DNA of 64,000 nt from contig JAFLBF010000002.1 of assembly GCA_017303895.1 (NCBI GenBank), forward strand, positions 1 through 64,000. Direction: 5' to 3'. The position numbers and the translations under genes were made by a program. The notes beneath the pieces were generated by a model that was given only the letters and a program-made list of their open reading frames with translations, was not told the DNA's origin and ran no database searches. This document shows, piece by piece, positions 4,673 to 33,809 of the stretch (the stretch's first letter is position 1; the number at the start of each line of letters is the position of its first letter). The DNA is from Bacteroidota bacterium. Lineage in GTDB: Bacteria > Bacteroidota > Bacteroidia > 2-12-FULL-35-15.

Positions 4673-6292
4673 TTATATCGATCCGGCACCTAACATCAAT
4701 ACCGGATTTTCTAAATTGTGTTTTAATGTTTGTAGGAATGCTGAGCCTAACGCTCCGTCAACCACTCTGTGGTCGCAGGATAAGGTTACTTTCATAATAT
4801 TTCCTGGAACGATCTGGCCGTTCTTTACTACTGGTGTTTGTTTGATTCCACCAACAGCAAGGATACAAGCATCAGGAGGGTTAATAATGGCCGTGAATTC
4901 ATCAATGCCAAACATTCCTAAATTTGAAATAGTAAATGTATTTCCTTCCCAATCACTTGGTTGAAGTTTTTTCTCTTTTGCTTTCACAGCGTAGTTACGT
5001 ACCTCTGTTCCAATTTGTGTTAATGTTTTTCCATCGGCAAAACGAACAACAGGAACCAATAATCCTTCTTCCACTGCTACAGCTACTCCAATATGAATAT
5101 GATTGTTGTAACGGATACGGTCGCCCAGCCATGAAGAGTTGATCTTTGGATGTTTGCGCAAGCTCATGGCCACTGCTTTGATCACCATATCATTGAATGA
5201 TATTTTAATTCCGGCAACGGTATTGATCGCTTCACGTGCTTTGATCGCTTCATCCATATCAATTTCCATTGTTAAATAGAAATGTGGAGCAGAGAATTTG
5301 CTTTCACCTAATCTGCGTGCAATGGTTTTACGCATTTGTGAAACAGACTCTTCGGTGAAGCTTTCTACACCAACAAATGCAGGCATAGCACTTCCATTCG
5401 ATTTAAAATTATCGATGTCGCGTTTAACAATTCTTCCATGATCACCACTGCCTTTCAAGGCTGAAATGCTGATTCCTTTTTCTTCTGCTAGTTTTTTAGC
5501 TAGAGGCGAAATTTTTGTTCTGCTTCCATCAGATGCAACAGTAGCAGTTGCCGTTTGTGCAACAGCTTTTTTCTCAACAACAACTTCTGTTTTAGCAGCA
5601 GGTTTTGAATCTGCAACAGCTGCCGGAGCAGCAGAACGGTTAGCATCAGCAGCAACAATCGCAGCAACATCTTCGCCACCTTTTCCTAAGATAGCCAGGA
5701 TAGAATCTACAGGAGCTCCTTTGCCTTCTTGAACGCCAATGTGTAATAATACGCCATCCTGGAATGATTCAAATTCCATGGTGGCTTTATCAGTTTGTAT
5801 ATCCGCCAATAATTCGCCCGACTTTACTTTATCGCCTACTTTTTTATGCCATTTCGCAACAACCCCTTCGGTCATTGTATCGCTCAATTTAGGCATACGA
5901 ACTATTTGTACTGTATCAGGAATTTTTACCTCTGCTTTTTTTTCTGCAATAGGAGACTCAACTTTCGAACTTTCCAACGTTGAATTTTGAACTGCCGCTT
6001 TGCTATCTACTGCATTGCCTGCCTGAGATGCTAATAAAGCGGTGATATCTTCCCCTTCTTTTCCTAGAATAGCAAGGATAGAATCAACAGGTGCACCTTT
6101 TCCTTCATTCACACCAATGTGAAGTAATACACCATTTTGAAATGATTCAAATTCCATGGTAGCTTTATCGGTTTCGATCTCCGCCAATACTTCACCCGAT
6201 TTAACTTTATCACCCACTTTTTTATGCCACTTAGCAACAACCCCTTCGGTCATTGTATCACTTAATTTGGGCATGCGTACTATTTCAGCCAT
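4673..6292 (-). CDS. pdhC: Pyruvate dehydrogenase E2, dihydrolipoyl acetyltransferase
   Basis: E2 transfers the acetyl group from lipoamide to CoA and forms the core of the cytoplasmic pyruvate dehydrogenase complex. The 539 residues show two N-terminal lipoyl domains (residues 3-82 and 129-208, lipoyl lysines Lys43 and Lys169 in DKATMEFE), Ala/Pro-rich linkers, a peripheral subunit-binding domain at about 258-294, and the catalytic domain ending with HRVVDG (His508, Asp512). The two lipoyl domains are nearly identical in protein sequence but differ at many synonymous sites. It follows pdhA by 48 bases. No E1-beta gene is present nearby. Confidence 0.95.
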   Translation of the reverse strand: MAEIVRMPKLSDTMTEGVVAKWHKKVGDKVKSGEVLAEIETDKATMEFESFQNGVLLHIGVNEGKGAPVDSILAILGKEGEDITALLASQAGNAVDSKAAVQNSTLESSKVESPIAEKKAEVKIPDTVQIVRMPKLSDTMTEGVVAKWHKKVGDKVKSGELLADIQTDKATMEFESFQDGVLLHIGVQEGKGAPVDSILAILGKGGEDVAAIVAADANRSAAPAAVADSKPAAKTEVVVEKKAVAQTATATVASDGSRTKISPLAKKLAEEKGISISALKGSGDHGRIVKRDIDNFKSNGSAMPAFVGVESFTEESVSQMRKTIARRLGESKFSAPHFYLTMEIDMDEAIKAREAINTVAGIKISFNDMVIKAVAMSLRKHPKINSSWLGDRIRYNNHIHIGVAVAVEEGLLVPVVRFADGKTLTQIGTEVRNYAVKAKEKKLQPSDWEGNTFTISNLGMFGIDEFTAIINPPDACILAVGGIKQTPVVKNGQIVPGNIMKVTLSCDHRVVDGALGSAFLQTLKHNLENPVLMLGAGSI

Positions 6293-6340
6293 ATTTTAAT
6301 TTCGAATTTCGGAATTACGATTTTTTGATTTAAACTATAA

Positions 6341-7390
6341 TTATTCTACAATGTATGGATAATCATCTTGAACATATACATCTTTGTATAGTTCATCAGC
6401 AGTAGGATATGGGGACTCTTCACCAAACTGAACAGATTCTGCAACGATATCATCTACACGTTTTTCTATTGCTTCAATATCTGCATCTGTAGCCCATTTG
6501 TTTTTCTTAATGGTTGCTAACACTTTCTCGATCGGATCTTGTGCCTGATACTCTTTTACTTCATCTTTGGTTCTGTATGTTTGAGCATCACTCATAGAGT
6601 GTCCTTTGTAACGGTAGGTTTTCATTTCCAACAAAGTTGGACCATTTCCTTTGCGGGCATGAGCAACTGCTTCTTCAATAGCCTCATGAACAGCTTCTAC
6701 TGTCATTCCATCTACAGCTTTTGAAGGCATGTCGTATGCTAAGCCTAATTTCCAAAGATCATGAACATTAGAAGTACGTTCTACCGATGTTCCCATCGCA
6801 TAATTATTATTCTCAATAATGAAAATCACAGGTAATTTCCAAAGCATTGCCATATTGAATGCTTCGTGCAATGCGCCTTGACGGACAGCACCATCGCCCA
6901 TGTAACAAAGTGTTACCAGGTCGTTACCATTGTATTTATCAGCAAATGCAATTCCTGCACCTAACGGGATTTGACCACCTACGATCCCATGACCACCAAA
7001 GAAGTTGAATTCTTTAGAGAACATGTGCATCGACCCTCCTTTTCCTTTGGAGCATCCGGTAACTTTTGCCATCATTTCGGCCATTACATATTTTGGATGC
7101 ATGCCTCGTCCAATTGGATGCGCATGGTCGCGGTAAGCGGTGATCACTCTATCCTCTCTTCGTAGTACAGATTCTGCACCTGCTACCAATGCTTCCTGCC
7201 CGATATACAAGTGGCAAAAGCCTCTGATCTTTTGTTGGATATATAAGTGTCCTGTTTTTTCTTCGAATTTACGCATCAACAACATGGATTCATACCAGTT
7301 CATGTAGGTTTCCTTGCTGAATTTTGTGGCCGATTTGGAGTCGGTAGATGCTTTTTTACTTTTAGCTGCAACTTTTTCCATTTTCTTCAT
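6341..7390 (-). CDS. pdhA: Pyruvate dehydrogenase E1 component, alpha subunit
   Basis: E1 alpha pairs with E1 beta to decarboxylate pyruvate using thiamine diphosphate. The cofactor-binding motif begins GDGAVRQG (Gly165-Asp166-Gly167) and continues to ENNNYAMGTS; the phosphorylation-loop region reads YRYKGHSMSD. At 349 residues it has the usual length, preceded by a Lys/Ser/Ala-rich N-terminal extension of about 25 residues that may be disordered. The gene is transcribed with pdhC. The E1 beta gene must lie elsewhere. A TAAATTTG element at 7404-7411 could serve as its -7 box. Confidence 0.94.
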   Translation of the reverse strand: MKKMEKVAAKSKKASTDSKSATKFSKETYMNWYESMLLMRKFEEKTGHLYIQQKIRGFCHLYIGQEALVAGAESVLRREDRVITAYRDHAHPIGRGMHPKYVMAEMMAKVTGCSKGKGGSMHMFSKEFNFFGGHGIVGGQIPLGAGIAFADKYNGNDLVTLCYMGDGAVRQGALHEAFNMAMLWKLPVIFIIENNNYAMGTSVERTSNVHDLWKLGLAYDMPSKAVDGMTVEAVHEAIEEAVAHARKGNGPTLLEMKTYRYKGHSMSDAQTYRTKDEVKEYQAQDPIEKVLATIKKNKWATDADIEAIEKRVDDIVAESVQFGEESPYPTADELYKDVYVQDDYPYIVE

Positions 7391-7465
7391 AGTTTAGAGA
7401 AAACAAATTTAACGATAATATTGATATAAAACATCCATTTTCATGGATTGTTTAGCCTTCGAAAA

Positions 7466-7957
7466 TTAGGATTTTTTGAGCTCTTCAGCCTTGAACATGA
7501 AGGGTAAAAGATCAGAAATGCTCTTCACCACCCTTATTTTGCCTGTTTCACCGGCCAAAATGATCTTGATATTGGTTTTATAACGCATTTCATACTCGGC
7601 AATGGCCTGACGGCAGGCTCCGCAAGGGGATAAAGGTTCATTCACATGAAAGGTTTTTGATTTGCAGGTTACAGCAATTGCCTCAATTGGCACCTCCGGA
7701 TAATGGGCTCCTGCAGCATAGATCGCCACCCTTTCAGCACATAAACCGCTGGGATAAGCCACATTTTCCTGGTTGTTTCCTGTAACGATCTTTCCATTTT
7801 TCAGAAGCAAAGCGGCTCCCACATGAAATTGAGAATATGGTGCATAAGCCGAATCGGTAATGATCCTCGCCTGCTTCAGTAATTCCTGTTCTTGAGCACT
7901 TAATTCTTGCTCCGTATCATACTCCCAATAATCGATCTTGATCTCCTTTTTATTCAT
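7466..7957 (-). CDS. cdd: Cytidine deaminase
   Basis: The enzyme deaminates cytidine and deoxycytidine to uridine forms in pyrimidine salvage. The zinc site is complete: CAERVAIY supplies Cys73 and the catalytic Glu75, and PCGACRQ supplies Cys112 and Cys115. The 163 residues include about 25 extra N-terminal residues over the short tetrameric type. It lies 75 bases upstream of pdhA on the same strand and may share its transcript. A TATATTTG element at 7977-7984 is 19 bases upstream of the start and could be its -7 box. Confidence 0.93.
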   Translation of the reverse strand: MNKKEIKIDYWEYDTEQELSAQEQELLKQARIITDSAYAPYSQFHVGAALLLKNGKIVTGNNQENVAYPSGLCAERVAIYAAGAHYPEVPIEAIAVTCKSKTFHVNEPLSPCGACRQAIAEYEMRYKTNIKIILAGETGKIRVVKSISDLLPFMFKAEELKKS

Positions 7958-8166: not shown

Positions 8167-9855
8167 ATGAGAACAAACATTTTCAAATTTTTAGCATTTG
8201 CTTTTGCCTTTTTGCTGGTTTATACGGCCAATGCTCAACAGTATCCGGGATACACTTCTTATAGCATTAAAAATACGTCTACCGCTTTTTTGCTGGATAC
8301 GAATGGTACTACTTATCATACCTGGACCGATGCAACAGCTAAAAAAACAGGTTATTCCACCTACGTAATGCCGGGAGGTTATTTGTGGAGAGGGATCGCT
8401 AAAACTGGAAATTCATTTACCGGTGGACCAATCTGTGGGGAAGTGCAAAAGCTAGATTATAATGGGAATGTGATTTGGGATTATGTTTATTCTACTACTG
8501 CTTATTGCTCACACCATGATATTTGTCCGATGCCCAATGGAAATGTTTTGCTGATCGCCTACGAAACAAAAACATCCGGTGAAGTTGCTGCTGCGGGCTG
8601 CTCTACTTATAGTGGTACCATGTGGCCGGATAAGATCGTTGAAGTGATGCCTACCGGAGCAACCACTGGAACTGTTGTTTGGGAATGGCATGCATGGGAT
8701 CATTTGGTGCAAAACACAAATGCTTCTGCTGCAAACTATCAAACATCTATTGTAAATCATCCGGAATTGTTGAACATTAATTACAATGCCCAAAAGGATT
8801 GGTTGCATGTGAATGGGGTTCATTATAATCCAATTTTGGATCAAGTAACATTCAGTTCACATAATTTAAGTGAGATCTATGTGATTGACCATAGTACAAC
8901 TACTGCTGAAGCAGCATCTCATTCCGGTGGAAATTCAGGAAAAGGTGGCGATATTCTTTATCGTTGGGGAAATCCTGCCGCTTATGGTGCAACGGGGACA
9001 AAAATTTTGAATGTCGTGCATGATGCACATTGGATAGCCGAAGATTGTCCGAATGGTGGTGAACTAATGGGTTATAATAATCAAGGAATTTCTACTACAG
9101 CTTCTTGTACCGATATCTTTAATCCTCCTGTTGCCGGATATAATTATAGTATAACTTTGGGTTCGGCTTATCTTCCTTCTACTTATACCTTGCGTCAGGC
9201 TTCCGGAGGCTACAACAGTAATGAAGGAAGTGCACAGCAATTACCAAATGGAAATATTTTGGTGAATATGGGTATTTCGGGATATATCAAAGAATTTAGT
9301 CCAACCGGAACACTTTTATGGTCAAAAACATTAACAGGAGGCAATGCAAAAGCATTTCGTTATCCGGAATGCTACATCAATAATGCTGCTCCTGCAATTC
9401 CTACGATCTCTGAATCAGCCGGAACGCTGAATTCAACATCAGCGACTTCGTATCAATGGTATTTAAATGGTCAGCCAATTGCCGGAGCAACCAATCAATC
9501 ATACACGCCAACTCAATCGGGTATTTATTTGGTGTGTATCACTGATGCAAATGGTTGTGTATATCAATACTCTCAAGGTTATTCATTTGCTGTTCCTACA
9601 GGGATCAATGAGTTGGAAGAAATAACATTCAATGTTTTCCCTAACCCATCTTCCGGTATTGTTAACATACAAGATACATTCAGTACAGGTAAGCGCTTCG
9701 ATGTTTTTGTGTACGATGCACTGGGTAAATTAGTTCTTCAAAATAAAACATTGTATCAATTGGATCTTTCAGAATATGGAAATGGAATGTACACGATCGC
9801 CATTCAACCTGAAAATGCAAAACCAATTCATACACGTGTGATCATTTCTAAATAA
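8167..9855 (+). CDS. Arylsulfotransferase-like protein with T9SS sorting domain
   Basis: The 562-residue protein starts with a signal peptide ending near ANAQ (residue 24). Residues about 25-400 resemble the arylsulfotransferase/ASST propeller family: HHDICPMPNGNVLLIAYE, HVNGVHYNPILDQVTFSSHN, SEIYVID and VVHDAHWI match its repeated His-rich blade motifs. An Ig-like segment follows (about 415-470, YQWYLNGQPIAGATNQSYTP), then a type A T9SS sorting domain starting FPNPSSG. It should therefore be exported across the outer membrane. Whether it transfers sulfate is unproved; propeller relatives often lack that activity. It is the first gene of an eight-gene operon. Confidence 0.75.
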   Translation: MRTNIFKFLAFAFAFLLVYTANAQQYPGYTSYSIKNTSTAFLLDTNGTTYHTWTDATAKKTGYSTYVMPGGYLWRGIAKTGNSFTGGPICGEVQKLDYNGNVIWDYVYSTTAYCSHHDICPMPNGNVLLIAYETKTSGEVAAAGCSTYSGTMWPDKIVEVMPTGATTGTVVWEWHAWDHLVQNTNASAANYQTSIVNHPELLNINYNAQKDWLHVNGVHYNPILDQVTFSSHNLSEIYVIDHSTTTAEAASHSGGNSGKGGDILYRWGNPAAYGATGTKILNVVHDAHWIAEDCPNGGELMGYNNQGISTTASCTDIFNPPVAGYNYSITLGSAYLPSTYTLRQASGGYNSNEGSAQQLPNGNILVNMGISGYIKEFSPTGTLLWSKTLTGGNAKAFRYPECYINNAAPAIPTISESAGTLNSTSATSYQWYLNGQPIAGATNQSYTPTQSGIYLVCITDANGCVYQYSQGYSFAVPTGINELEEITFNVFPNPSSGIVNIQDTFSTGKRFDVFVYDALGKLVLQNKTLYQLDLSEYGNGMYTIAIQPENAKPIHTRVIISK

Positions 9856-9863
9856 TAAACAAC

Positions 9864-10871
9864 ATGAAAAAAGTATTTTTAATTCTTATTGCATCTGTTC
9901 TGGTATCGGGTTCTGCTTTTGCAAAAAAAGTAAAATTTGCCGTGGATATGAGTGGTGTAACTGTTAGTCCGCTAGGGGTGAGAGTAACCGGTGATTTTCA
10001 AACTGCAGCAGGCTTTCCCGGGGGCGACTGGACCACCAATACCTTGCTTACTCAAGAAACGGCTGATACCAATATCTATAGCACGGTGGTAGATATTCCA
10101 GCTTTTGCTAAATATGAATATAAGTTTGTAAACGGAGATCAATTCTATGAAGCAGAGTTCGTACCTCTAGAGTCGAGAGTGGGATATAATTTTAATGATA
10201 ACCGCTGGATCTATATCGATTCATTGGCTAATGATACCACTTTCGTTGGTGCGATACGTTTTGCAGGCAATGCCCCTAAAAACAAAAAGCTGGTACGCTT
10301 TTATGTGGACATGCAGAATGAAACCGTTTCATCAAACGGAGTGCATGTAGCAGGAAGCTTTCAATCGTGGAATGCAGCGAGTACGATCATGTACACTTTT
10401 TCTGATCCTTCTGCAGTTTCTGTTTATGAAGTAATTGCTTATGTAGATTCATTATCTACTTACGAGTATAAATTTTACAATGGAAATGCATTGATCAATA
10501 CCGAGATCGTTCCCGGAGCATGTGCAACCAATTCCAATCGATCTTTTACTTCTGTTAATGATACATTAATGAGCACAGTATGTTTCTCTGCTTGTTCAGC
10601 TTGTGGTTCAACAAGTATTGCGGAAGAAACAGTGGCATCATTCAAATTTTATCCGAACCCGACAGATGACCAATCGGTATTCATGTTCGATGTGCCAATC
10701 AATAAAGCATCGGTATTTGTATATGATGTAGCAGGTCGACTTGTTCAAAATTTTAATATTTCTAATCAATCTAATTTTACATTGCAAAGAGGGGCTTTGT
10801 CGGCCGGTATTTACACGATTACAGTGGATGCAGAGAATACCCGTTCGAATGTAAAATGGATCATTAAATAA
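9864..10871 (+). CDS. T9SS-exported protein with two glycogen-binding-like beta domains
   Basis: A signal peptide (to about residue 20) is followed by two related domains: residues 21-130 (KVKFAVDMSGVTVSPLGVRV) and 132-240 (LVRFYVDMQNETVSSNGVHV). Both read like early-set domains of the AMPK/CBM48 glycogen-recognition type, with the pattern VDM-x-V-S-x-GV-x-V-x-G-x-F and later YEYKFxNG. A T9SS type A sorting domain beginning FYPNPTDD closes the 335-residue protein. No catalytic residues are apparent, so a glycan-binding or scaffold role is likely. It sits eight bases after the ASST-like gene and six before cotH. Confidence 0.7.
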   Translation: MKKVFLILIASVLVSGSAFAKKVKFAVDMSGVTVSPLGVRVTGDFQTAAGFPGGDWTTNTLLTQETADTNIYSTVVDIPAFAKYEYKFVNGDQFYEAEFVPLESRVGYNFNDNRWIYIDSLANDTTFVGAIRFAGNAPKNKKLVRFYVDMQNETVSSNGVHVAGSFQSWNAASTIMYTFSDPSAVSVYEVIAYVDSLSTYEYKFYNGNALINTEIVPGACATNSNRSFTSVNDTLMSTVCFSACSACGSTSIAEETVASFKFYPNPTDDQSVFMFDVPINKASVFVYDVAGRLVQNFNISNQSNFTLQRGALSAGIYTITVDAENTRSNVKWIIK

Positions 10872-10877
10872 AGCTAA

Positions 10878-13169
10878 ATGCGTTTCAGATCATTTTTTTT
10901 GAACTATCGTTTTTTATTACTCTTTGTAATAACTTGTTACTCGAATGTTTTTTCTCAAACTACTTTTTATGATCTGAATACCATTCAGAAGATAGAAATA
11001 TTTTTCTCTATTCCTGATTGGGATTACCGGATGGATACGGCCAAATACGGGGCAGAAGGATACCTTATTGCAGATTCGGTGCTCGTCAACGGAGTTGCAT
11101 TTGATAGTGCCGGTGTTAAGTACAAAGGGAATAGTTCTTACGATTCTACACAAATAAAAAATCCACTGCACATTGAATTGGATAATGTACTGAACCAATC
11201 ATATCAGGGAGTCTCCGATATTAAATTAGGAAACGGTTATGCCGATCCTTCTATGATTCGCGAAGTACTGTCGTATGATATACTTCAAAATTACATGCAT
11301 TGTCCAAGAGCAAATTTTGCTCAAGTGTATATCAATGGAACTTATATTGGTTTGTATTCCAATGCGGAGAATATTGGAAAAGATTTTGTTTCCACTCATT
11401 TTAATTCCTCTTCCAATACCTTTTTCAAATGTAATCCGATTACAGTTCCTACACCATTAACTAAAAGTAATTTGAGATACATCAATACCGATAGCTCCAG
11501 CTATTTTAATTATTATGAATTAAAATCAGATACAGGCTGGAACGATCTGGTGAAACTATGTGATACAGTCACCAATTTTTCTTCGAGTTTGGGAAATGTA
11601 TTAGATATGGATCGTGTGATCTGGATGCTGGCCTTCAACAATGTGTTGGTCAATCTGGATAGTTATACCGGTGTGTTTTGTCAGAATTACTATTTGTACA
11701 AAGACAATACAGCTCATTTTAACCCGATCGTTTGGGATCTGAATATGGCTTTGGGCGGCTTTCCTTATGTAGGAAGTGGAGCTAGTAGTATGGGTAGTTT
11801 GACGGTTGCGAATATGCAACAACTGCCTGCTACTATTCATTCTACTGATGTTTATTGGCCACTGATAAAAAATACATTGTCGAATCCGATGTATAAAAGA
11901 ATGTATATTGCACACATACGTACCATCATGAATGAAATGTTTGCCAGTGGAGCCTATCAAACGCTTGCAACACAAATTCAGGCAACCATTGATACAGCGG
12001 TTCAATCGGATAGTCATAAGTTTTTCAGCTATTCACAATTTCAAAATGCGATGAGCACTGATAATGTGGTAGGCACCTATACCGTTCCGGGAATTAGCAA
12101 TTTGATGAGTGCACGTATCTCTTATTTGCAAGGTACAGCCGATTTTACGGCAACGCCTCCTGCTATTTCAAATATATTGGCAAGTAATTCAAGTCCGGCA
12201 TTAAATAGCACAGTTACTATTACAGCACAAGTTACGGGCTCAAGTGCTGTTTATTTGGGATACCGGACCGACCTCAATGCAAAGTTTGTGAGAGTAAACA
12301 TGTTTGATGATGGAACGCATAACGATGGCGCTGCAGGTGATAATGTTTTTGGTGCCGACTTCATCATGTCATCAGCCCAAGCCCAGTATTATATCTATGC
12401 GGAGAATTCAACAGCAGGGATATTTTCTCCTGAACGTGCCGAGCATGAATTTTACAATTTGGTATCCAGTGTTCAAACAGCTGGTCCGGGACAAGTCGCC
12501 ATCAATGAATTTTTAGCGATCAATCAAACGGGGCAAACAAATGAAACCGGAAACTATGAAGATTGGATAGAGTTGTATAATACCACTTCCAATCCATTAG
12601 AATTATTCGGATTGTATCTTACAGATGAATTGAGCAATCTAACCAAATATGCCTTTCCTATCAATACGATCATTCAACCGAATGATCATCTGATCATTTG
12701 GGCTGATGATGGAACTTCAACGGCTTCTTATTTACATTCTAATTTTAAACTTTCCGGAAATGGAGAAAAGATCATTTTAAGTAATTCCTCCGGAACGATC
12801 ATCGACAGTGTTTCATTTGGCCCACAAACAGCTGATGTTTCTGTTGGCCGTTGTCCGGATGGTACCGGACCATTCGCTACTTTAATAAGCCCAAGTTTTG
12901 ATATGCAAAACTGTGCAGTTGGAATTGAAGAAAATGAATTGGGAAATGTTCAAGTGTATCCAAATCCAGCCAACTCATTTATTACCATCTTCCGCTCACT
13001 CGATAATGAAAAGGCTAACATAGAAGTGCTGAATGCTACTGGCACACTTGTATATACTGCTCAAATGCAGGGCAGTTTTATGAAGCTGGATGTGAGTAAT
13101 TGGGCAAACGGCATTTATTTTGTTAGAATAAATAACCTGTCGGTTCAGAAAATAGTCGTTAATCGCTAA
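10878..13169 (+). CDS. CotH-family protein kinase with lamin-tail and T9SS sorting domains
   Basis: CotH proteins are atypical secreted kinases, first known from Bacillus spore coats, where CotH phosphorylates CotB and CotG. In this 763-residue protein a signal peptide is followed by a CotH domain (about 35-425). Visible motifs are VKYKGNSSY, LGNGYADPSMIREVLSYD, the probable catalytic NLDSYTG (Asn259, Asp261) and the metal-binding WDLNMALGG (Asp287, Asn289). After a beta domain comes a lamin-tail domain (about 540-670, VAINEFLAINQTG and EDWIELYNT) and a T9SS type A sorting domain (VYPNPANSF). It should act at the cell surface or outside. Its target is unknown; other operon products are candidates. 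Confidence 0.85.
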   Translation: MRFRSFFLNYRFLLLFVITCYSNVFSQTTFYDLNTIQKIEIFFSIPDWDYRMDTAKYGAEGYLIADSVLVNGVAFDSAGVKYKGNSSYDSTQIKNPLHIELDNVLNQSYQGVSDIKLGNGYADPSMIREVLSYDILQNYMHCPRANFAQVYINGTYIGLYSNAENIGKDFVSTHFNSSSNTFFKCNPITVPTPLTKSNLRYINTDSSSYFNYYELKSDTGWNDLVKLCDTVTNFSSSLGNVLDMDRVIWMLAFNNVLVNLDSYTGVFCQNYYLYKDNTAHFNPIVWDLNMALGGFPYVGSGASSMGSLTVANMQQLPATIHSTDVYWPLIKNTLSNPMYKRMYIAHIRTIMNEMFASGAYQTLATQIQATIDTAVQSDSHKFFSYSQFQNAMSTDNVVGTYTVPGISNLMSARISYLQGTADFTATPPAISNILASNSSPALNSTVTITAQVTGSSAVYLGYRTDLNAKFVRVNMFDDGTHNDGAAGDNVFGADFIMSSAQAQYYIYAENSTAGIFSPERAEHEFYNLVSSVQTAGPGQVAINEFLAINQTGQTNETGNYEDWIELYNTTSNPLELFGLYLTDELSNLTKYAFPINTIIQPNDHLIIWADDGTSTASYLHSNFKLSGNGEKIILSNSSGTIIDSVSFGPQTADVSVGRCPDGTGPFATLISPSFDMQNCAVGIEENELGNVQVYPNPANSFITIFRSLDNEKANIEVLNATGTLVYTAQMQGSFMKLDVSNWANGIYFVRINNLSVQKIVVNR

Positions 13170-13220
13170 TACAAGTCCTTTCATTTTCTTAATATTGTAT
13201 TCATGTTAAATTGATACCTC

Positions 13221-13616
13221 ATGAAAAAAGCATTGTTCATTTTTAGTTTGTTTACAGTTGTCTTATCTGTATCCTGTAAAAAGCCGGCTGGTGAAGGCGG
13301 AAATTCTTCCATCAAAGGAAATATTTGGGTAGAAGAGTGGGATGCTACATTTACAGTTCATTTATCTGCAAACGACCGTGTTGGAATGGGGGAGGATGTA
13401 TATATTATTTATGGAGACGATGTGTCCTATGGTGATAAAATAGAGTGTAGTTACGATGGGACATTCGAATTCAAATATTTAAGAAAAGGAACCTATACCA
13501 TTTATGTGTATTCGAAAGATTCCGGTCCATCAGGAACAAAAGCGATTGTGAAAACAGTAGACATTACCGGTAAAAAACAAACTGTTGATGCCGGACAATT
13601 TGTAATTAAAGATTAA
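13221..13616 (+). CDS. Small lipoprotein with beta-sandwich (carboxypeptidase regulatory-like) domain
   Basis: The 131 residues begin with a lipoprotein signal (LSVSC, Cys19 or nearby). The mature part is a single small beta domain: a GNIWVEEWDATF strand, an acidic loop, then FEFKYLRKGTYTIYVYSKD, which resembles carboxypeptidase regulatory-like or transthyretin-like folds of Bacteroidota surface proteins. No enzymatic motif is seen. The gene lies 51 bases after the CotH gene and its stop codon overlaps the next ATG by one base, which ties it to the operon. Confidence 0.6.
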   Translation: MKKALFIFSLFTVVLSVSCKKPAGEGGNSSIKGNIWVEEWDATFTVHLSANDRVGMGEDVYIIYGDDVSYGDKIECSYDGTFEFKYLRKGTYTIYVYSKDSGPSGTKAIVKTVDITGKKQTVDAGQFVIKD

Positions 13617-14179
13617 TGATCATGATGCGAATAATTTCATTATTGTTTCTTGTTTTGTTCTCTTTGTCTGCTTTTTCACAGAGCAAAAAAGATATCAAAA
13701 AGTATAAACTAAAGTCAACTACCGTTACGGTTACCGATGCATCCTCTTCTAAAACACAAAAAGAGTTGTATGAAAAATACGATGGAAACGGAAATGTGAT
13801 CGAGGAAGAAGAATATTCCAAAGAGGGTGTGCTCAAAAAAAAATCATCTAAAAAATATAACAAGAACAACGATGTAGTTGAAGAGATCAGTTATGATGAA
13901 AAAACATTGGCTATCAAAAAGAAAACCGTAACAGAATATGCTGATGAGAATCCGGTGACCGAATTGGTGTACGATGCGCATGGAAAGTTGTTGGAGAAAA
14001 CCATTTTTTCCTATAATTCATTAGGAGAAAAAATTCAGGAATTGACTTATGATGATAAAGGAAAGACGATTAAAAAGTCTCTTTTTACATACGACAAGAA
14101 TGGATTTAAAACAGAGAAGAAGACCTATAATGGCAATGGGGATTTGATCCAAACTAAAAAGTATACTTACACCTATTGA
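13616..14179 (+). CDS. Secreted repeat protein (YD/RHS-like short repeats)
   Basis: A signal peptide ending near AFSQ is followed by about seven repeats of some 22 residues built on the pattern YDxxGxxxEExxYxxxGxxxKK, for example YDGNGNVIEEEEYSKEG and YDDKGKTIKKSLFTYDKNG. They resemble YD/RHS-type or antitoxin-like beta-hairpin repeats. The mature protein is very rich in Lys and Glu. The start ATG overlaps the previous stop; ATGs at 13622 and 13625 are also possible. The next gene begins directly after the stop. Function unknown; a periplasmic or surface binding protein is a reasonable guess. Confidence 0.6.
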   Translation: MIMMRIISLLFLVLFSLSAFSQSKKDIKKYKLKSTTVTVTDASSSKTQKELYEKYDGNGNVIEEEEYSKEGVLKKKSSKKYNKNNDVVEEISYDEKTLAIKKKTVTEYADENPVTELVYDAHGKLLEKTIFSYNSLGEKIQELTYDDKGKTIKKSLFTYDKNGFKTEKKTYNGNGDLIQTKKYTYTY

Positions 14180-14944
14180 TTGGAATCAATTAATGACATA
14201 TTAAACCGCTTTGAACCTATTACCCTTGCGGAAATGGACAGTGTGAAATTAATGGACAGAACCGACATCAAATTTCTGATCCATTCTTCTATATTGCCCT
14301 CTCTTTTGACTGAATTAGATCAAAGTTATCGCATACTCGATGTGAATGGAAACCGGATCAGTCGTTATGAGTCGCTGTATTTCGATACGCCCGGTTTCGA
14401 TCTTTTTCATAATCACCGCAGAGGAAAGCTAAATCGATACAAGGTACGTATTAGAAAATATGTAGAATCGGAACTCAATTTTTTTGAAGTGAAATTCAAA
14501 AATAACAAAGGAAGAACGATCAAAGACAGAGTAAAACAAAAAGTGATCGATGGATCTATTCAGGATAAAGCAGAAGGTTTATTGAAGGAAAAAACAAGTC
14601 TGGTTCCTGATTCATTGGAGCCGAAGCTTTGGGTGAATTATTCCAGGATAACACTCGTGAATAAGCATTCTCCTGAGCGTGTAACACTCGATCTGAATTT
14701 GCATTTTAAGAATAACGACATATTAAAAAATGTTGAAAATCTGGTGATCGCAGAGGTGAAACAGGATAAAGCAGTTGCATCGCCTTTTATCCGTTTGATG
14801 CGAAAACATCATGTTCGCGAAGGTTCCATCAGCAAATATTGCTTTGGAGTGATCAGTTTATTCGAAAAAATAAAGCACAACAATTTTAAACCGAAATTAA
14901 TCTCATTAAAAAAAGTAACTCATGGAATTATTGCAAGCAGTTAA
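14180..14944 (+). CDS. VTC-domain polyphosphate polymerase-like protein
   Basis: VTC domains make polyphosphate from ATP on a basic tunnel surface at the cytoplasmic membrane. This 254-residue protein has the family motifs in order: MDRTDIKF (Arg27, Lys31), SLYFDTP (66-71), RYKVRIRKY (basic cluster, residues 86-94), FEVKFKNNKGR (Glu103, Lys105, Lys107), and late AEVKQDK and SISKYC. The start is a TTG directly after the preceding stop; the next in-frame ATG would remove the conserved ILNRFEPITLAEM start. The gene overlaps the DUF4956 gene by 23 bases, an adjacency also known in other bacteria. Confidence 0.85.
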   Translation: MESINDILNRFEPITLAEMDSVKLMDRTDIKFLIHSSILPSLLTELDQSYRILDVNGNRISRYESLYFDTPGFDLFHNHRRGKLNRYKVRIRKYVESELNFFEVKFKNNKGRTIKDRVKQKVIDGSIQDKAEGLLKEKTSLVPDSLEPKLWVNYSRITLVNKHSPERVTLDLNLHFKNNDILKNVENLVIAEVKQDKAVASPFIRLMRKHHVREGSISKYCFGVISLFEKIKHNNFKPKLISLKKVTHGIIASS

Positions 14945-15542
14945 CGAAGAAACAGTTGGTGTAACATTTGATCTGTTTGAAAAGCTTTCAGCGAAGTTTT
15001 TCTCACGTTTGTGTATCGATTTTGTTTCGGTGTTCATTCTTATTCGTTTTATCTATTATCCAATTTATAAGAACAGAGAATTCTTCTTCACCTTCTTTAT
15101 TTTTAATTTGATCATTTTCCTCATCACCTTTTTATTGAATAAAGTGGAGATGAGTATGGGAGCCGCTTTTGGTTTGTTTGCTGTATTCTCGATGTTGCGC
15201 TACCGCACCGAAGGCATCTCCATGAAAGATATGACCTATTTGTTTTTGGTCATTGCTATGGGATTGATCACAGCCATCAGTAAAGGAAATTGGGATGAGT
15301 TATCCTTGTTGAATGGGATTATCTTGGTGTTTACCTATTTGTTGGAAAGTAATGTTTTGCTTAAAAAAGAAGCATCCAAAACCATTCAGTACGAGAATAT
15401 CGAAATGATCAAGCCTGAGTTCCGTCAGCAATTGATTCTGGATCTCGAATCGCGTACAGGTATCAAGATCAATCGTATCAGCATTAATAAAGTTGATTTT
15501 TTAAAAGATACAGCTGTTATCCGTATCTATTACTATGAATAA
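14922..15542 (+). CDS. DUF4956 integral membrane protein
   Basis: The 206 residues hold about five hydrophobic segments (near residues 30-46, 53-70, 76-92, 102-120 and 126-146) and a soluble C-terminal tail. The motif GAAFGLFAVFSMLRYRTEGI is the hallmark of DUF4956. The family is commonly next to VTC-domain genes, and here the two overlap by 23 bases, which suggests a complex in which DUF4956 anchors the polymerase or moves its product through the inner membrane. No biochemical function is established to my knowledge. Confidence 0.85.
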   Translation: MELLQAVNEETVGVTFDLFEKLSAKFFSRLCIDFVSVFILIRFIYYPIYKNREFFFTFFIFNLIIFLITFLLNKVEMSMGAAFGLFAVFSMLRYRTEGISMKDMTYLFLVIAMGLITAISKGNWDELSLLNGIILVFTYLLESNVLLKKEASKTIQYENIEMIKPEFRQQLILDLESRTGIKINRISINKVDFLKDTAVIRIYYYE

Positions 15543-16231
15543 TGAAATACATTCTTAAACATATCCTTTTTGTTTTTTTATGTGTGTGGAGCTTAAGTAG
15601 CACTGCTCAGGTGATCAACGATGCCGGTTTGTGGACCACCTTGAATTTTGAAAAGAAGATCAACAAAAAATTTGCAGTATTACTAACTGAAGAATTTCGT
15701 ATGCGGGAGAACATCACCCGCTTGAATTTATTTTATACTGACTTAGGTATTTCTTACAAACCGGTTGATTTTTTTAAGGCCAGCATCTCTTACCGTTGGA
15801 TCGATAAATATCAGGTAGAAGGATATTTTAGTTTTCGTCATCGCTTTTCTTTGGATCTTTTGTTCAAGAAAAAGATCGAGAATTTTAGTATTTCATACCG
15901 TCATCGTTTGCAACGTGAGGTAAGGGATATTAATTCCAGTTATGATGGACGTTTGCCGGAATGGTATTCACGGAGTAAAGTAGAATTGAAATACGATATG
16001 GGTAATCGTTTAACTCCTTATGTGTCGTTCGAAGCCCGTTACCAGATCGTGAACCCAAGAATGCAGGAGTCGGATAATTCCTGGCATAGAAGCCGTTATG
16101 CTTTAGGATTTAACTATGAATTGGACAAACGGAATACGCTAGGTGCTTACTATCTGATCCAAAACGAATACAATGTTTCTTCCCCTCAAAACCAATACAT
16201 CATCGGATTGGAGTATTCGCTTTCTTTATAA
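15542..16231 (+). CDS. DUF2490-type outer-membrane beta-barrel protein
   Basis: The 229-residue protein has a signal peptide (to about STAQ, residue 22) followed by regularly alternating amphipathic strands. DAGLWTTLNFEKKINKKF at the start of the mature part and repeated short barrel strands such as FKASISYRWIDKY are typical of the DUF2490 family of outer-membrane proteins; the last strand ends QYIIGLEYSLSL. Its ATG overlaps the stop of the DUF4956 gene by one base, so it is the last gene of the operon. It would give the inner-membrane VTC/DUF4956 pair an outer-membrane partner. It ends five bases from lipA on the opposite strand. Confidence 0.75.
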   Translation: MKYILKHILFVFLCVWSLSSTAQVINDAGLWTTLNFEKKINKKFAVLLTEEFRMRENITRLNLFYTDLGISYKPVDFFKASISYRWIDKYQVEGYFSFRHRFSLDLLFKKKIENFSISYRHRLQREVRDINSSYDGRLPEWYSRSKVELKYDMGNRLTPYVSFEARYQIVNPRMQESDNSWHRSRYALGFNYELDKRNTLGAYYLIQNEYNVSSPQNQYIIGLEYSLSL

Positions 16232-28569: not shown

Positions 28570-28577
28570 TAAATTTG
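28570..28577 (+). promoter_or_regulatory. Possible -7 element for porU
   Basis: TAAATTTG matches TAnnTTTG and lies 18 bases before the porU ATG at 28596. No clear -33 box, and the divergent porP promoter lies close by. Confidence 0.35.
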
Positions 28578-28595
28578 GGATCCAATTTTTCCAAT

Positions 28596-31500
28596 ATGAT
28601 GAGAAAAAAAATAAGCTTGTTGATTGCCTTCTTTTTAGTTGTGAGTTCTTATGCTCAAAAGAAGATTGATCAAGCACAGTACCAGATCCGCTGGGATGGT
28701 TTGAGGGAAGAAAAGTACCTCGAGACTGATTTTATGCGCTTGCTTAGCTTTGAGGGGGCCCAATATGCCTTTGAAGATGCATTTTTACCAAGGTATTTCC
28801 AAAAAGTGGAACTTTCTTCCGATGTGGATCAGTTTTCTGCGACTATAGTTAATGCAAAATATGGTTTATTGTCTGATAATGAGACTTCTACAATAAAAGA
28901 TCTTTCTAAAATAACACAGTCAATAAGCATTCGTTCCAATGTATTAAGATCCAAGGGAAACAAAAGCGGAATGATATCTTTTATCCCGCTTCGTAAAAAT
29001 CCGACAACCGGGCAAATAGAAAAATTAGTATCCTTCGATTTACAAATAAATGTCGAAAATTCAACGCGAAGTTCAATTCGTGCTAATTCATATGTTTCTA
29101 ATTCGGTTCTAAAAACTGGAGATTGGTACAAAATAGCAATTGCCGCAGATGGAGTATATAAGATCGATAAAACTTTTTTAGAAAATTTAGGCTTAGATCT
29201 AGATAATCTTGATCCAAGAAATATCCGTATTTATGGTAATGGTGGAGTAATGTTGCCAGAACTTAACTCTGAAATGCATTCTGACGATTTATTAGAAAAC
29301 GCAATTTATGTCCAAGGGGAAAGTGATGGTGTGTTTAATGCTTCGGATTATGTTTTGTTCTATGGTAAGGCAACAGTTGGTTGGGAATACGACTCAACAA
29401 CAAGTTGTCCTTCGTTTCAACATATAGAACATTTGTATGCCGATTCGGCTTTTTATTTTTTAACAGTTGATCTGGGGCCTGGTAAAAGGATTCAGGATAT
29501 AGCATCTTCATCTGCAAGCCCAACACATGTGGTATCATCTTTTGATGACTACGCATTTCATGAAAGCGATAATGTGAATTTTATTAAAACGGGTAGACAA
29601 TGGTTTGGAGAGTTATTTGATAATGTTTCTTCTTATAATTTTTCTTTTTCTTTTCCGAATATTGTTACCACATCACCTGTGAATGTAAAAGTTGCTTTAG
29701 CATCCCGTCTGGTTATTTCAGGTTCATCTTCAAATGCTAATTATGCTATTAATAGCGGTTCGGGAAGTGCCACCTTGTCAATTCCAAGTGTAGATGGAAG
29801 TTTATATAGTGATTATGCTCGTGTGGCCTCCACTTGTTACAGTTATAATTCATCTTCTTCTGTAATAACTGTAAATGTGAGTAAACAAACGGCTAATGCA
29901 ACAGCTTGGTTGGATTACATCATTGTAAATGCCAGAAGGAGTTTGATCATGAGTGGCGCTCAAATGAAATTTAGAGATACTCAATCAGCAGGCCTTGGAA
30001 ATATTGCACAATACAGTTTGACGAGTACTACTCCTGTTACTGTTTGGAATATTACGGATATAACAAATGTGAATAATCAAATGTTGTCTGTTTCAGGTTC
30101 TAATTACCAGTTCACGTTACCAACGGATTCAATCAATGAATTTATTGCATTTGCATCCTCTTCTTTTTTGTCACCCAAAAAGGTAGGTAAAATAGAAAAT
30201 CAGGATCTACATGGAATCGGACCAAAAGACTATATCATTGTTGCTCATCCCAATTTTTACAACGAAGCTGTTCAATTAGCTTTGTTTCATGAAACAAACG
30301 ATACAATCTCAACAGTAGTTGTTACCCCTCAGCAGATCTATAATGAATTTTCATCAGGAACCAGAGATGCATCAGCTATACGTAATTTTTTAAAGATGTT
30401 TTATGATAGAGCAACAACTGCCTCTGAATACCCTAAATACCTTTTGCTATTTGGCGATGGCTCTTACGAAAATAAAAAAGATTATTCAGGCAACACTAAT
30501 TTCATTCCAACTTATCAATCATTTAACTCTACGATCATTACTCAGTCATATGTGTCGGATGATTATTTTGGATTGCTGGATGATGGTGAGGGTTTATTTA
30601 CATCTGATGCCGTAGATATAGGAATTGGACGTTTTCCTGTAAAAACAAAAGCGGAAGCGATCAGTTGTATCAATAAGGTGTTTTCATACACAAGAAAAGG
30701 GTTTGATTATAATGCTGTAGCAGATGCTTGTACTTCCGGATCTGCATCATCTTCCCCTTTTGGAGATTGGAGAAATGTCATTTCTTTTGTTGCAGACGAT
30801 GAAGATGGTGGCTTGCATCAAAAAGATGCGGATAAGTTAGCTACATTGGTTGATACAACTTATAATAACTACAATGTCGACAAGGTTTATTTAGATGCAT
30901 TTGTACAAGAAACTACGCCTGGTGGACAACGTTATCCTGCAGCTAAAGAAGCAGTGAATAAACGTTTTGAAAAAGGGTGTTTGATCTGGAATTACACTGG
31001 TCATGGCGGTGAGTTAGGCTTGGCTCATGAGCGTTTGGTAGAAGTGTCGGATGTTAATAGCTGGACGAACATTAATAATTTACCATTGGTATTTACTGCC
31101 ACTTGTGAGTTTACTCGTTATGATGACCCTGAAAGAACTTCGGCCGGTGAAATGGTCTTCTTAAACCCTTCCGGTGGTGCTATTGCTATGTTCAGTACTG
31201 TGCGTGTAGTGTTTGCAGGGCCTAATTTTTTATTGAATCAGGAATTTTATAAAGCATTAGAAACCCCGGTAAATGGCAAAAAACCTACTCTTGGCGATCT
31301 TTATTATTACATGAAAAATCAGCCGATTGGTACAGCTCTGAATAGCCGGAGTTTTACTTTAGTTGGAGATCCTGCCTTACGGTTGGCGTATCCAGAGTAT
31401 AATGTATCAACTGATTCTATCAATTCTATTGCAATAACGAGTACTTCTTTAGATACCATTAAAGCACTTTCAACAATAACCATAAGTGGATTTGTTAGAG

Positions 31501-32483
31501 ATGGTAATAATAATATAATGACGGGATTTAACGGGATACTTTATCCTACGGTTTACGACAAAACCCAAAGTGTTAATACACTTGTGAATGATGGGCCTGC
31601 AACTCCTCCTTTTACATTTAAATTTCAGAAGAACGTGCTTTACAAAGGAAAAGTGAGTGTTTCAAATGGCTATTTCAAATATTCATTTATTGTTCCCAAA
31701 GATATCTTATATAATTATGGAATTGGTCGTATCAGTTATTATGTTCAAAATGGATCAGAGGATGGTCGTGGGTTTTATGAAAAGATAATTATTGGTGGGA
31801 CAGATAACAATGCGCCAGCTGATTCTAAAGGGCCGGAAGTTAGCTTATATCTGAACGATGATAAATTCGTATTTGGAGGTATTACAGATGAAACGCCTGA
31901 TCTGTTCGCAAAAGTTAAAGATGACAACGGAGTTAATACGGTTGGTAATGGTATTGGGCATGATATTACAGCGGTGTTGGATGCTAATACTGATAATTCC
32001 ATTGTGCTAAATGACTATTACCAATCTGATCTCAATAGTTATAAAACAGGAACTATCCGATATCCATTCTCAACATTATCTGAGGGGCAACATACACTTA
32101 CCCTAAAGGTTTGGGATGTATATAATAATTCTTCTCAAACCTATACGGAGTTTGTTGTTGCAAAATCTGCCGATCTAGCACTGAGTCATGTTTTGAATTA
32201 TCCGAATCCATTCACGACTAAAACGGCATTTTATTTTGAACATAATCAGTGTTGTCAAACATTGGAAGTGGAGCTTCAAGTGTTTACTATATCAGGTAAA
32301 TTAGTTAAAACGATCACCGATTTTGTTACTGCTGAAGGAAATCGATCAGATCCTATTTACTGGGATGGTCGTGATGACTTTGGCGATAAGATCGGAAAAG
32401 GAGTATATGTTTATAAGTTGAAAGTGAAGAACTCTACAGGCAGTTCAGCAGAACAAATAGAAAAGCTTGTCATTTTAAATTAA
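28596..32483 (+). CDS. porU: Type IX secretion system sortase PorU
   Basis: PorU is the cell-surface cysteine protease that removes C-terminal sorting domains from T9SS cargo and attaches the cargo to the surface. The ATG at 28596 gives 1295 residues with a signal peptide ending near SYAQ. A gingipain-like C25 peptidase domain lies in the second half, with catalytic His803 in NYTGHGGELGLAH and Cys837 in FTATCEFTRYDDPERTS, 34 residues apart. The end (LNYPNPFTTKTAFYF to GKGVYVYKLKV) is a FlgD-like Ig domain. It is followed 25 bases later by porV, its partner. Its cargo would include the six sorting-domain proteins in this window. Confidence 0.93.
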   Translation: MMRKKISLLIAFFLVVSSYAQKKIDQAQYQIRWDGLREEKYLETDFMRLLSFEGAQYAFEDAFLPRYFQKVELSSDVDQFSATIVNAKYGLLSDNETSTIKDLSKITQSISIRSNVLRSKGNKSGMISFIPLRKNPTTGQIEKLVSFDLQINVENSTRSSIRANSYVSNSVLKTGDWYKIAIAADGVYKIDKTFLENLGLDLDNLDPRNIRIYGNGGVMLPELNSEMHSDDLLENAIYVQGESDGVFNASDYVLFYGKATVGWEYDSTTSCPSFQHIEHLYADSAFYFLTVDLGPGKRIQDIASSSASPTHVVSSFDDYAFHESDNVNFIKTGRQWFGELFDNVSSYNFSFSFPNIVTTSPVNVKVALASRLVISGSSSNANYAINSGSGSATLSIPSVDGSLYSDYARVASTCYSYNSSSSVITVNVSKQTANATAWLDYIIVNARRSLIMSGAQMKFRDTQSAGLGNIAQYSLTSTTPVTVWNITDITNVNNQMLSVSGSNYQFTLPTDSINEFIAFASSSFLSPKKVGKIENQDLHGIGPKDYIIVAHPNFYNEAVQLALFHETNDTISTVVVTPQQIYNEFSSGTRDASAIRNFLKMFYDRATTASEYPKYLLLFGDGSYENKKDYSGNTNFIPTYQSFNSTIITQSYVSDDYFGLLDDGEGLFTSDAVDIGIGRFPVKTKAEAISCINKVFSYTRKGFDYNAVADACTSGSASSSPFGDWRNVISFVADDEDGGLHQKDADKLATLVDTTYNNYNVDKVYLDAFVQETTPGGQRYPAAKEAVNKRFEKGCLIWNYTGHGGELGLAHERLVEVSDVNSWTNINNLPLVFTATCEFTRYDDPERTSAGEMVFLNPSGGAIAMFSTVRVVFAGPNFLLNQEFYKALETPVNGKKPTLGDLYYYMKNQPIGTALNSRSFTLVGDPALRLAYPEYNVSTDSINSIAITSTSLDTIKALSTITISGFVRDGNNNIMTGFNGILYPTVYDKTQSVNTLVNDGPATPPFTFKFQKNVLYKGKVSVSNGYFKYSFIVPKDILYNYGIGRISYYVQNGSEDGRGFYEKIIIGGTDNNAPADSKGPEVSLYLNDDKFVFGGITDETPDLFAKVKDDNGVNTVGNGIGHDITAVLDANTDNSIVLNDYYQSDLNSYKTGTIRYPFSTLSEGQHTLTLKVWDVYNNSSQTYTEFVVAKSADLALSHVLNYPNPFTTKTAFYFEHNQCCQTLEVELQVFTISGKLVKTITDFVTAEGNRSDPIYWDGRDDFGDKIGKGVYVYKLKVKNSTGSSAEQIEKLVILN

Positions 32484-32508
32484 TTAGTACATTAGCAATC
32501 CCAAAAAA

Positions 32509-33765
32509 ATGAGTAGGATGAATTATATGAATAGATATGGTATTTGTGCGGTAGCAACATTGGTTTTATTTTCTTTTGGAAATACAGTTCAGGCACAGTC
32601 AACACAAAATCAAAGAGCCGATGAGGTGCAGTTAAATACAATCACTACAGCTGTTCCGTTCTTGTTGATCACTCCTGATTCAAGAGCCGGTGGAATGGGT
32701 GATGTGGGTGTTGCTTCTTCAACGGATGTAAACTCCATTCATTGGAATCCATCCAAATTGGCGTTTGCAGATAAAAAAATGGGTATTGGTGTTTCATATA
32801 CACCTTGGTTAAGAGCATTGGTTCCGGATATCAACTTGGCTTACTTGTCGGGTTATTACAAAACAAAAAAACGCGGAACGATCGGTGCATCACTTCGCTA
32901 TTTTTCATTAGGCGATATTACCTTTACAGATAATAATGGTAATACAATTGGCCAATTCCGTCCCAATGAATTTGCTGTTGATGTTGCTTATGCAATTAAG
33001 TTGTCGGATAATTTTTCTGCCGGTGGTGCTGTTCGATTTGTAAATTCTAATTTAACCGGTGGTGCATTGGTGGAAGGTTCTCAAACAAAGGCAGGTCGTT
33101 CTATTGCTGTTGACGTTTCTGCATTGTATAAAAAAGACAAGATTAAATTGCAAGATAAAAAAGCAACAGCAGCGGTTGGTTTAAATATTTCGAATATTGG
33201 GAATAAGATGTCGTATTCCGATAGAGGCGGAGCAAACAGTGCTAATTTTATTCCGATCAATTTACGTTTAGGAGGATCATTAACGGTTCTGTTAGATGAT
33301 TACAACAGCATTGCGATCATGGCCGATGTAAATAAATTATTGGTACCTACACCACCCACTTATGAGTTGGATACAAATGGAGCGGTAGTGTATAAAGGTG
33401 GTCAGCCTGTTATTTTAGCCGGTAAAGATCCTAACAGAGGTGTTGCTGAAGGAATGTTTGGTTCTTTCAACGATGCTCCGGGTGGAAGTAAAGAAGAGTT
33501 GAGAGAGATCAATTATTCTTTGGGTATGGAATATTGGTACAACAAATTGTTTGCTGTTCGTGTAGGTTATTTCTACGAGCATCCAACAAAAGGAAACCGT
33601 CAGTATTTTACACTTGGAGCAGGTGTTAAATACAATGTATTCGGTTTAGATTTTGCTTATTTGATCCCGACACAGCAACGTAATCCATTAGAGAATACAT
33701 TACGATTTACACTCACATTCGACTTTGATGCATTCAAAGCTCAGAATGATGAAAAAACAGAATAG
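32509..33765 (+). CDS. porV: Type IX secretion system outer-membrane protein PorV
   Basis: PorV is the FadL-like barrel that collects cargo from the SprA translocon and delivers it to PorU. The 418 residues begin with a signal peptide (ending VQAQ). The mature N-terminal part contains the family's AVPFLLITPDSRAGGMGDVG, followed by VASSTDVNSIHWNPSKLAFA, which is diagnostic for PorV/LptO, and barrel strands to the end (LRFTLTFDFDAF). It is co-transcribed with porU and ends at a strong terminator. Confidence 0.94.
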   Translation: MSRMNYMNRYGICAVATLVLFSFGNTVQAQSTQNQRADEVQLNTITTAVPFLLITPDSRAGGMGDVGVASSTDVNSIHWNPSKLAFADKKMGIGVSYTPWLRALVPDINLAYLSGYYKTKKRGTIGASLRYFSLGDITFTDNNGNTIGQFRPNEFAVDVAYAIKLSDNFSAGGAVRFVNSNLTGGALVEGSQTKAGRSIAVDVSALYKKDKIKLQDKKATAAVGLNISNIGNKMSYSDRGGANSANFIPINLRLGGSLTVLLDDYNSIAIMADVNKLLVPTPPTYELDTNGAVVYKGGQPVILAGKDPNRGVAEGMFGSFNDAPGGSKEELREINYSLGMEYWYNKLFAVRVGYFYEHPTKGNRQYFTLGAGVKYNVFGLDFAYLIPTQQRNPLENTLRFTLTFDFDAFKAQNDEKTE

Positions 33766-33771
33766 TCATTG

Positions 33772-33797: not shown

Positions 33798-33809
33798 AAA
33801 ATAAAATGT

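What the first reader, a model, noticed from the sequence alone, without database searches (positions are those of the whole stretch)
8167..16231. Eight-gene CotH kinase / VTC polyphosphate / DUF4956 operon with T9SS-exported partners
Eight genes are packed with gaps of 0-51 bases and four contacts or overlaps. They place an exported atypical kinase (CotH), two further exported proteins (an arylsulfotransferase-like propeller and a double glycogen-binding-like protein), a lipoprotein, a repeat protein, a polyphosphate polymerase (VTC), a DUF4956 membrane protein and a DUF2490 outer-membrane barrel under one control. Adjacency of VTC and DUF4956, often with CotH, is known in other bacteria, but its purpose is not. 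The layout suggests an envelope-spanning system that makes or moves polyphosphate or phosphorylated material and modifies surface proteins or glycans. Operon packing and domains are seen; the joint function is inference.
Basis: partly seen in the sequence, partly recalled or inferred. Interest (0 to 1): 0.78.

Follow-up and report, generated by a model that had tools for sequence, protein, structure and literature searches.

The report
Polyphosphate–CotH surface locus with sulfotransferase-like cassette
Eight packed genes in a Bacteroidota genome join an inner-membrane polyphosphate-making pair (VTC and DUF4956) to an outer-membrane barrel and to surface-exported proteins, including a CotH kinase; the trio was described only beside Pel biofilm genes, but it recurs widely without room for them and with other phosphate-handling genes, which makes a surface phosphate system testable.

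Summary
In detail: eight + strand genes, 8167-16231, gaps 8, 6, 51, -1, 0, -23, -1, with the domains named. It is not chance. VTC-DUF4956 are adjacent in 110 of 121 distinct relatives of this DUF4956, overlapping or within 5 bases in 97, and once fused. In 295 other Bacteroidota genomes all 47 with VTC have DUF4956 and 46 have CotH. But it is two units. A core (lipoprotein, repeat protein, VTC, DUF4956, DUF2490) is near constant in the genus. A separate ASST-CBM-CotH cassette occupies a variable slot, may lie elsewhere, and in one genome exists without VTC. The VTC keeps every Vtc4 catalytic residue tested. DUF4956 is MgtC-like (TM + ACT-like domain), as published for a streptococcal homologue. 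Elsewhere DUF2490's place is taken by a phosphate-selective porin or HlyD/OEP parts, and PHO4 or phosphatases sit alongside. Best reading: polyphosphate made at the inner face is delivered outward for CotH-linked surface or polysaccharide modification; export and CotH chemistry are inferred. The trio was known from Pel operons (2020, 2025); the 2025 paper found it only there, whereas these operons have no room for pel genes. New variant of a known kind.

The parts
8167..9855 (+). Exported ASST-like propeller with T9SS type A tail
   Evidence: Pfam PF05935 66 bits + PF18962; AF2 model closest to Cpz4 (9kf6) and AssT (3ett)
9864..10871 (+). Exported tandem CBM20/48-like protein with T9SS tail; fused to the ASST-like protein in L081, L209, L210
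10878..13169 (+). Exported CotH-family atypical kinase + lamin-tail domain + T9SS tail; D261, D287, E164 kept
13221..13616 (+). Putative lipoprotein (Cys19; loose lipobox), beta-sandwich-like; core member
13616..14179 (+). Exported YD-repeat-like protein; core member in the genus
14180..14944 (+). VTC-domain polyphosphate polymerase (TTG start), presumed cytosolic, all seven Vtc4 active-site residues tested are kept
14922..15542 (+). DUF4956 inner-membrane protein, about 5 predicted TM helices + ACT-like C-terminal domain, MgtC-like
15542..16231 (+). DUF2490 protein, presumed outer-membrane barrel
4673..7957 (-). Left flank (PDH E2, PDH E1-alpha, cytidine deaminase): conserved insertion site of the core
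28575..34289 (+). porU-porV-ispF, which in related genomes abut the 3' end of the core; displaced about 12 kb here

Best explanation
The locus is a VTC-DUF4956-CotH surface-phosphate module. The VTC enzyme makes polyphosphate from ATP at the cytosolic face of the inner membrane; the overlapping MgtC/ACT-type membrane protein DUF4956 receives or gates the product; an outer-membrane barrel (DUF2490 here, a phosphate-selective porin or HlyD/OEP parts elsewhere) lets phosphate or polyphosphate reach the cell surface. Outside, the T9SS-exported CotH, with its ASST-like and CBM-like partners, attaches phosphate to, or organises, surface proteins or exopolysaccharide. Shown: gene content, conservation, catalytic residues, partner swaps, co-occurrence. 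Inferred: that polymer crosses the membranes, and what CotH transfers and to what.
For: VTC keeps Vtc4 K200, R264, R266, K281, R361, E426, K458 as K31, R90, R92, K105, R156, E192, K219. VTC adjacent to DUF4956 in 110/121 unique loci, 97 overlapping or within 5 bases; one in-frame fusion (L159). 47/47 VTC genomes have DUF4956 and 46/47 have CotH (p=5e-23 by genome, 3e-10 by genus). DUF4956 neighbours elsewhere: Porin_O_P (L164, E=2e-70; L093, E=2.5e-7), PHO4 (L254, L255), phytase-like (L255), purple-acid-type phosphatase (L089), HlyD/OEP-like (L110, L104, L111). The genome has a separate PPK1, so ordinary storage does not need VTC. Second locus in the same genome: DUF4956-VTC-CotH-Wzy-CotH beside glycosyltransferases (L064; homologues L069, L070).
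Against: No direct evidence of transport; DUF4956 has no confident match to a solved channel. 60 of 106 CotH genomes lack VTC, and G203 has a close ASST+CBM-CotH cassette with neither VTC nor DUF4956, so CotH does not always need this supply. Deleting the VTC gene in S. intermedius gave no aggregation phenotype (PMC12345266). DUF2490 showed no profile similarity to the porins.
Confidence: 0.4

Rival explanations
1. Inner-membrane phosphate/energy sensing: MgtC-like DUF4956 with its ACT-like domain senses a metabolite and controls VTC, setting cytosolic polyphosphate, ATP or phosphate; nothing crosses the membrane, and the exported genes are merely co-regulated outputs.
For: DUF4956-MgtC profile match and ACT-like predicted domain; MgtC in Salmonella acts on ATP synthase and PhoR (as cited in PMC12345266); PHO4 permease beside VTC in L254 and L255.
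Against: Repeated presence of outer-membrane and periplasmic export parts in the same operons (DUF2490 in 91/121 loci; Porin_O_P, HlyD/OEP); DUF4956 also occurs without VTC beside HlyD/OEP (L109, L110).
Confidence: 0.25
2. Exopolysaccharide accessory: CotH phosphorylates a polysaccharide or an assembly protein and DUF4956/VTC tune synthesis or anchoring, as in Pel loci; polyphosphate is secondary.
For: CotH-PPP-DUF4956 in Gram-positive Pel loci (PMC7112168); deletion of the DUF4956 and CotH genes changes Pel amount and aggregation while VTC deletion does not (PMC12345266); second locus lies among glycosyltransferases and a Wzy-type ligase/polymerase; CBM-like partner.
Against: The window locus has no glycosyltransferase in the operon, and most Bacteroidota type A operons are too short to hold a polysaccharide cluster; phosphate transport genes are neighbours elsewhere.
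Confidence: 0.2
3. The VTC domain is not a polymerase but a triphosphate-tunnel hydrolase that breaks down polyphosphate or triphosphate for the membrane partner.
For: The CYTH/TTM fold mostly hosts phosphatases (abstract of PMC8233210).
Against: The profile's best solved relatives are Vtc4 polymerases, and all seven Vtc4 residues tested are kept.
Confidence: 0.08
4. The ASST-CBM-CotH genes are a chance neighbour of the core.
For: They are absent from most core loci (ASST in 15 of 121) and exist without VTC in G203.
Against: The cassette meets the core in several families and on either side of it (L081, L091, L146, L150), and 5 of the 9 closest ASST homologues in the 296 genomes adjoin VTC/DUF4956 against 1 of 48 weaker ones (p=1.7e-4; the window itself is one of the 5).
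Confidence: 0.07

Closest known systems
CotH-PPP(VTC)-DUF4956 accessory genes of Gram-positive Pel operons (Whitfield et al. 2020, PMC7112168; S. intermedius SIR_1592-1594, 2025, PMC12345266)
   Same: Same three families in one gene string; the DUF4956 homologue described there as MgtC TM + ACT; secreted CotH.
   Different: No room for pel genes in these operons; Gram-negative; T9SS export, DUF2490 barrel, lipoprotein, and the ASST/CBM cassette. The 2025 paper reports not finding the trio outside Pel; searches find operons with no room for pel genes.
Eukaryotic VTC complex (Vtc4 with a VTC1-type membrane subunit)
   Same: Polymerase domain with an intact active site paired with a small membrane protein.
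   Different: No SPX domain; the membrane partner is an MgtC-like protein; location is the cell envelope.
MgtC/SapB family
   Same: Type B DUF4956 aligns to MgtC (96%, controls at most 2.2%).
   Different: The window's type A links only through type B (98.4%); carries its own conserved RYRT...M.Y.F motif.
PAPS-independent arylsulfate sulfotransferases (AssT, Cpz4)
   Same: Propeller fold, conserved histidines.
   Different: Divergent subfamily; Arg-374 equivalent is His in 16 of 19 aligned members.

Membership tests
VTC polyphosphate polymerase (Vtc4-type) | VTC domain with active-site K200/R264/R266/K281/R361/E426/K458 | tested here: met
   the residue list itself is from general knowledge of Vtc4
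VTC polyphosphate polymerase (Vtc4-type) | ATP-dependent polyphosphate synthesis | not testable with these tools
   needs purified protein
CotH atypical kinase | CotH domain with catalytic and metal Asp residues | tested here: met
   Pfam 153 bits; D261, D287, E164 kept; aligned to Spore coat protein H 5jd9
Arylsulfate sulfotransferase (AssT) | Propeller related to AssT/Cpz4 | tested here: met
Arylsulfate sulfotransferase (AssT) | Catalytic Arg-374 equivalent | tested here: not met
   His232 in the window; H in 16, R in 2, P in 1 of 19 aligned; so it is called ASST-like, not AssT
Pel-associated CotH-PPP-DUF4956 gene set | The three families in one gene string | tested here: met
Pel-associated CotH-PPP-DUF4956 gene set | Contiguous with pel genes | tested here: not met
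   Flanks are cdd/pdhA/pdhC and lipA on the opposite strand; pel families were not searched elsewhere in the genome
T9SS type A cargo | Signal peptide and C-terminal Por_Secre_tail | tested here: met
   three proteins; SprA in the genome, PorU/PorV in the window
MgtC/SapB superfamily | Profile similarity to MgtC | tested here: inconclusive
   type B 96%, type A direct 1.8%, A-B 98.4%; controls at most 2.2%

The most novel reading that the evidence does not exclude
VTC-DUF4956 plus an outer-membrane barrel is an envelope-spanning polyphosphate exporter that supplies the phosphoryl donor for extracytoplasmic CotH kinases, which work where there is no ATP; the ASST-CBM-CotH cassette would be a second, donor-driven surface-modification set coupled to it.
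Probability: 0.18. Interest if true: 0.88.

Novelty: new variant of a known kind. Interest (0 to 1): 0.57.

Why it matters
How a kinase outside the cell gets its phosphate is an open question, and bacterial VTC proteins and DUF4956 have almost no assigned role (3 papers in the library mention DUF4956). The survey shows that the trio is a general, shuffled, cross-phylum module, tied to phosphate porins and permeases, which gives clean deletion and biochemical tests outside Pel biology and questions the published statement that the trio occurs only in Pel loci.

Tried and rejected
A direct solved-structure match for DUF4956: none by sequence or by fold (no E below 0.001). Direct hhalign of type A DUF4956 to MgtC: 1.8%, not significant; only type B bridges. 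DUF2490 as a relative of Porin_O_P: no (at most 12.5%). Bacteroidota-type promoter splitting the locus: no TAnnTTTG motif in the window gaps or upstream of the first gene, so uninformative. The 778-aa VTC ORF of L099: the extra N-terminal part has no family and reads like out-of-frame sequence, so it is not counted as a fusion. The first gene-calling pass hid DUF4956 in several loci behind antisense ORFs; repeated with family-first calling. The strong form of the donor idea (every CotH needs VTC) is rejected by 60 CotH genomes without VTC. AssT residue mapping by solved-structure search failed, so Bacteroidota AssT homologues were used instead.
Full report
OBSERVATION. The eight ORFs exist as described, on the + strand at 8167-16231. 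Gaps are 8, 6, 51, -1, 0, -23, -1. Pfam and NCBIfam support CotH (with a lamin-tail domain), VTC, DUF4956, DUF2490 and three T9SS type A tails; the ASST match is real but divergent (66 bits against 230-350 for standard AssT proteins in other Bacteroidota), and the glycogen-binding-like matches are weak. The assembly also encodes SprA, and PorU and PorV lie in the window at 28575-33765, so T9SS export is plausible.

TWO UNITS. I took about 160 loci from related genomes and annotated them with profiles seeded from the window. In the genus, lipoprotein-repeat protein-VTC-DUF4956-DUF2490 is almost constant (25-27 of 27 unique loci for each gene). The place upstream of it varies: ASST-CBM-CotH, a 1026-aa CotH, a propeller-type exported protein, or nothing. 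The ASST-CBM-CotH cassette recurs with the core in other families, upstream (L081, L146, L150) or downstream (L091); ASST and CBM are fused in L081, L209 and L210. The genome of L209 keeps the core on another contig (L084), and the genome of L210 (G203) has no VTC or DUF4956 at all. In three congeners the CotH-lipoprotein gap is 298-397 bases. So 'one operon' fits this genome's packing but is not a fixed unit.

RECURRENCE BEYOND CHANCE. VTC lies immediately before DUF4956 in 110 of 121 unique type A loci, 97 of them overlapping or within 5 bases, and the two are fused in frame in L159 (the N-terminus is cut by the contig end, and an assembly error cannot be excluded). Among 295 other Bacteroidota genomes VTC is in 47; all 47 have DUF4956 and 46 have CotH. 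By genus this is 36 of 37 VTC genera with CotH against 43 of 103 others (p=3e-10). The relation is nested: 60 CotH genomes have no VTC. Outside Bacteroidota the trio appears in shuffled order: CotH-VTC-DUF4956 in L164 and L263, and DUF4956-CotH-VTC in L257-L260. DUF4956 is rare in the phylum of L164 (8 of 398 genomes).

ACTIVE SITES. A profile of 28 VTC proteins finds Vtc4 as its best solved relative. Counting residues along the printed alignment places Vtc4 K200, R264, R266, K281, R361, E426 and K458 on window K31, R90, R92, K105, R156, E192 and K219, all kept (that these are the catalytic residues is general knowledge). CotH keeps E164, D261 and D287, of which the two Asp align with Asp of the solved spore coat kinase. 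In the ASST-like protein the histidines at 116, 117, 179, 214, 242, 252 and 285 and Arg266 are invariant, but the position matching AssT Arg-374 is His in 16 of 19 aligned members, so sulfotransfer is unproven. Its model is nearest to Cpz4 and AssT by fold.

DUF4956. The model has five helices in the membrane part and an ACT/ferredoxin-like C-terminus (mean pLDDT 83). The type B subfamily aligns with MgtC (96%, score 67) while 21 control families, including two with 10 or more predicted TM helices, reach at most 2.2% (score 24); type A joins through type B (98.4%). A 2025 paper already described the S. intermedius homologue as MgtC TM + ACT, so this is confirmation, not discovery.

PARTNER SWAPS POINT TO PHOSPHATE AND TO THE ENVELOPE. 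Where DUF2490 is missing, DUF4956 may sit beside a phosphate-selective porin O/P (L164, E=2e-70; L093, E=2.5e-7), or HlyD-type and OEP-type proteins (L104, L110, L111; the ~355-aa protein before VTC in type B loci resembles the HlyD-like L111 protein, 95%). In two Pseudomonadota genomes DUF4956-VTC is followed by the PHO4 phosphate permease, once with a phytase-like gene. A type A DUF4956 without VTC is followed, after one unknown gene, by a calcineurin-type phosphatase (L089). A second locus in the window's own genome is DUF4956-VTC-CotH-Wzy-CotH beside glycosyltransferases (L064).

LITERATURE. Whitfield et al. 2020 noted cotH, a poly-phosphate polymerase and DUF4956 next to pel in streptococci, clostridia and bifidobacteria. 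In S. intermedius, deleting the DUF4956 or CotH gene reduced aggregation and shifted Pel amount, no reduction was reported for the VTC deletion, and the authors report no such synteny outside Pel. The operons found here (for example L082, L156, L164) are complete runs of same-strand genes with no room for five pel genes; I did not search the genomes for pel genes. A B. thetaiotaomicron DUF4956-DUF2490 pair is listed as iron-responsive (PMC10434189).

CONSERVED ADDRESS. In many Flavobacteriales-like genomes of several families the core sits exactly between pdhC-pdhA-cytidine deaminase and ispF-porV-porU. The window keeps the first border, while porU-porV-ispF is about 12 kb away, so the site is old and next to T9SS genes; this is consistent with, but does not prove, a functional tie.

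VERDICT. A real, conserved, cross-phylum VTC-DUF4956-CotH module with a new exported partner cassette. Polyphosphate synthesis is likely; outward delivery and its use by CotH are the best-supported inference but unproven (0.4).

Noticed in passing
L032-L060, L075, L141, L156, L167, L169, L188: The core is inserted at one conserved site between pdhC-pdhA-cytidine deaminase and ispF-porV-porU (T9SS) in several families; the window has lost the right border (porU-porV-ispF at 28575-34289).
   Followed up: partly
L064 (G000:C10:38500-56500): A second DUF4956-VTC pair in the same genome, of another subfamily (type B), next to two CotH genes, a Wzy-like gene and glycosyltransferases.
   Followed up: partly
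L089, L090, L165, L174: Type A DUF4956 without VTC, followed by an unknown ~340-aa exported protein (one weak CotH match) and a similar-sized pair to the purple-acid-type phosphatase gene seen in L089: a possible phosphatase version of the module.
   Followed up: no
L095, L097, L092: A short (185 aa) DUF4956 form next to a conserved ~625-aa gene in genomes without VTC.
   Followed up: no
window 5669-6285: 239-base direct repeat (84%) inside the PDH E2 gene: two tandem lipoyl domains, ordinary.
   Followed up: yes
L213, L216, L217: Tandem ASST-like propeller genes (2-3 copies) away from VTC/CotH in other Bacteroidota: a larger unassigned exported family.
   Followed up: no
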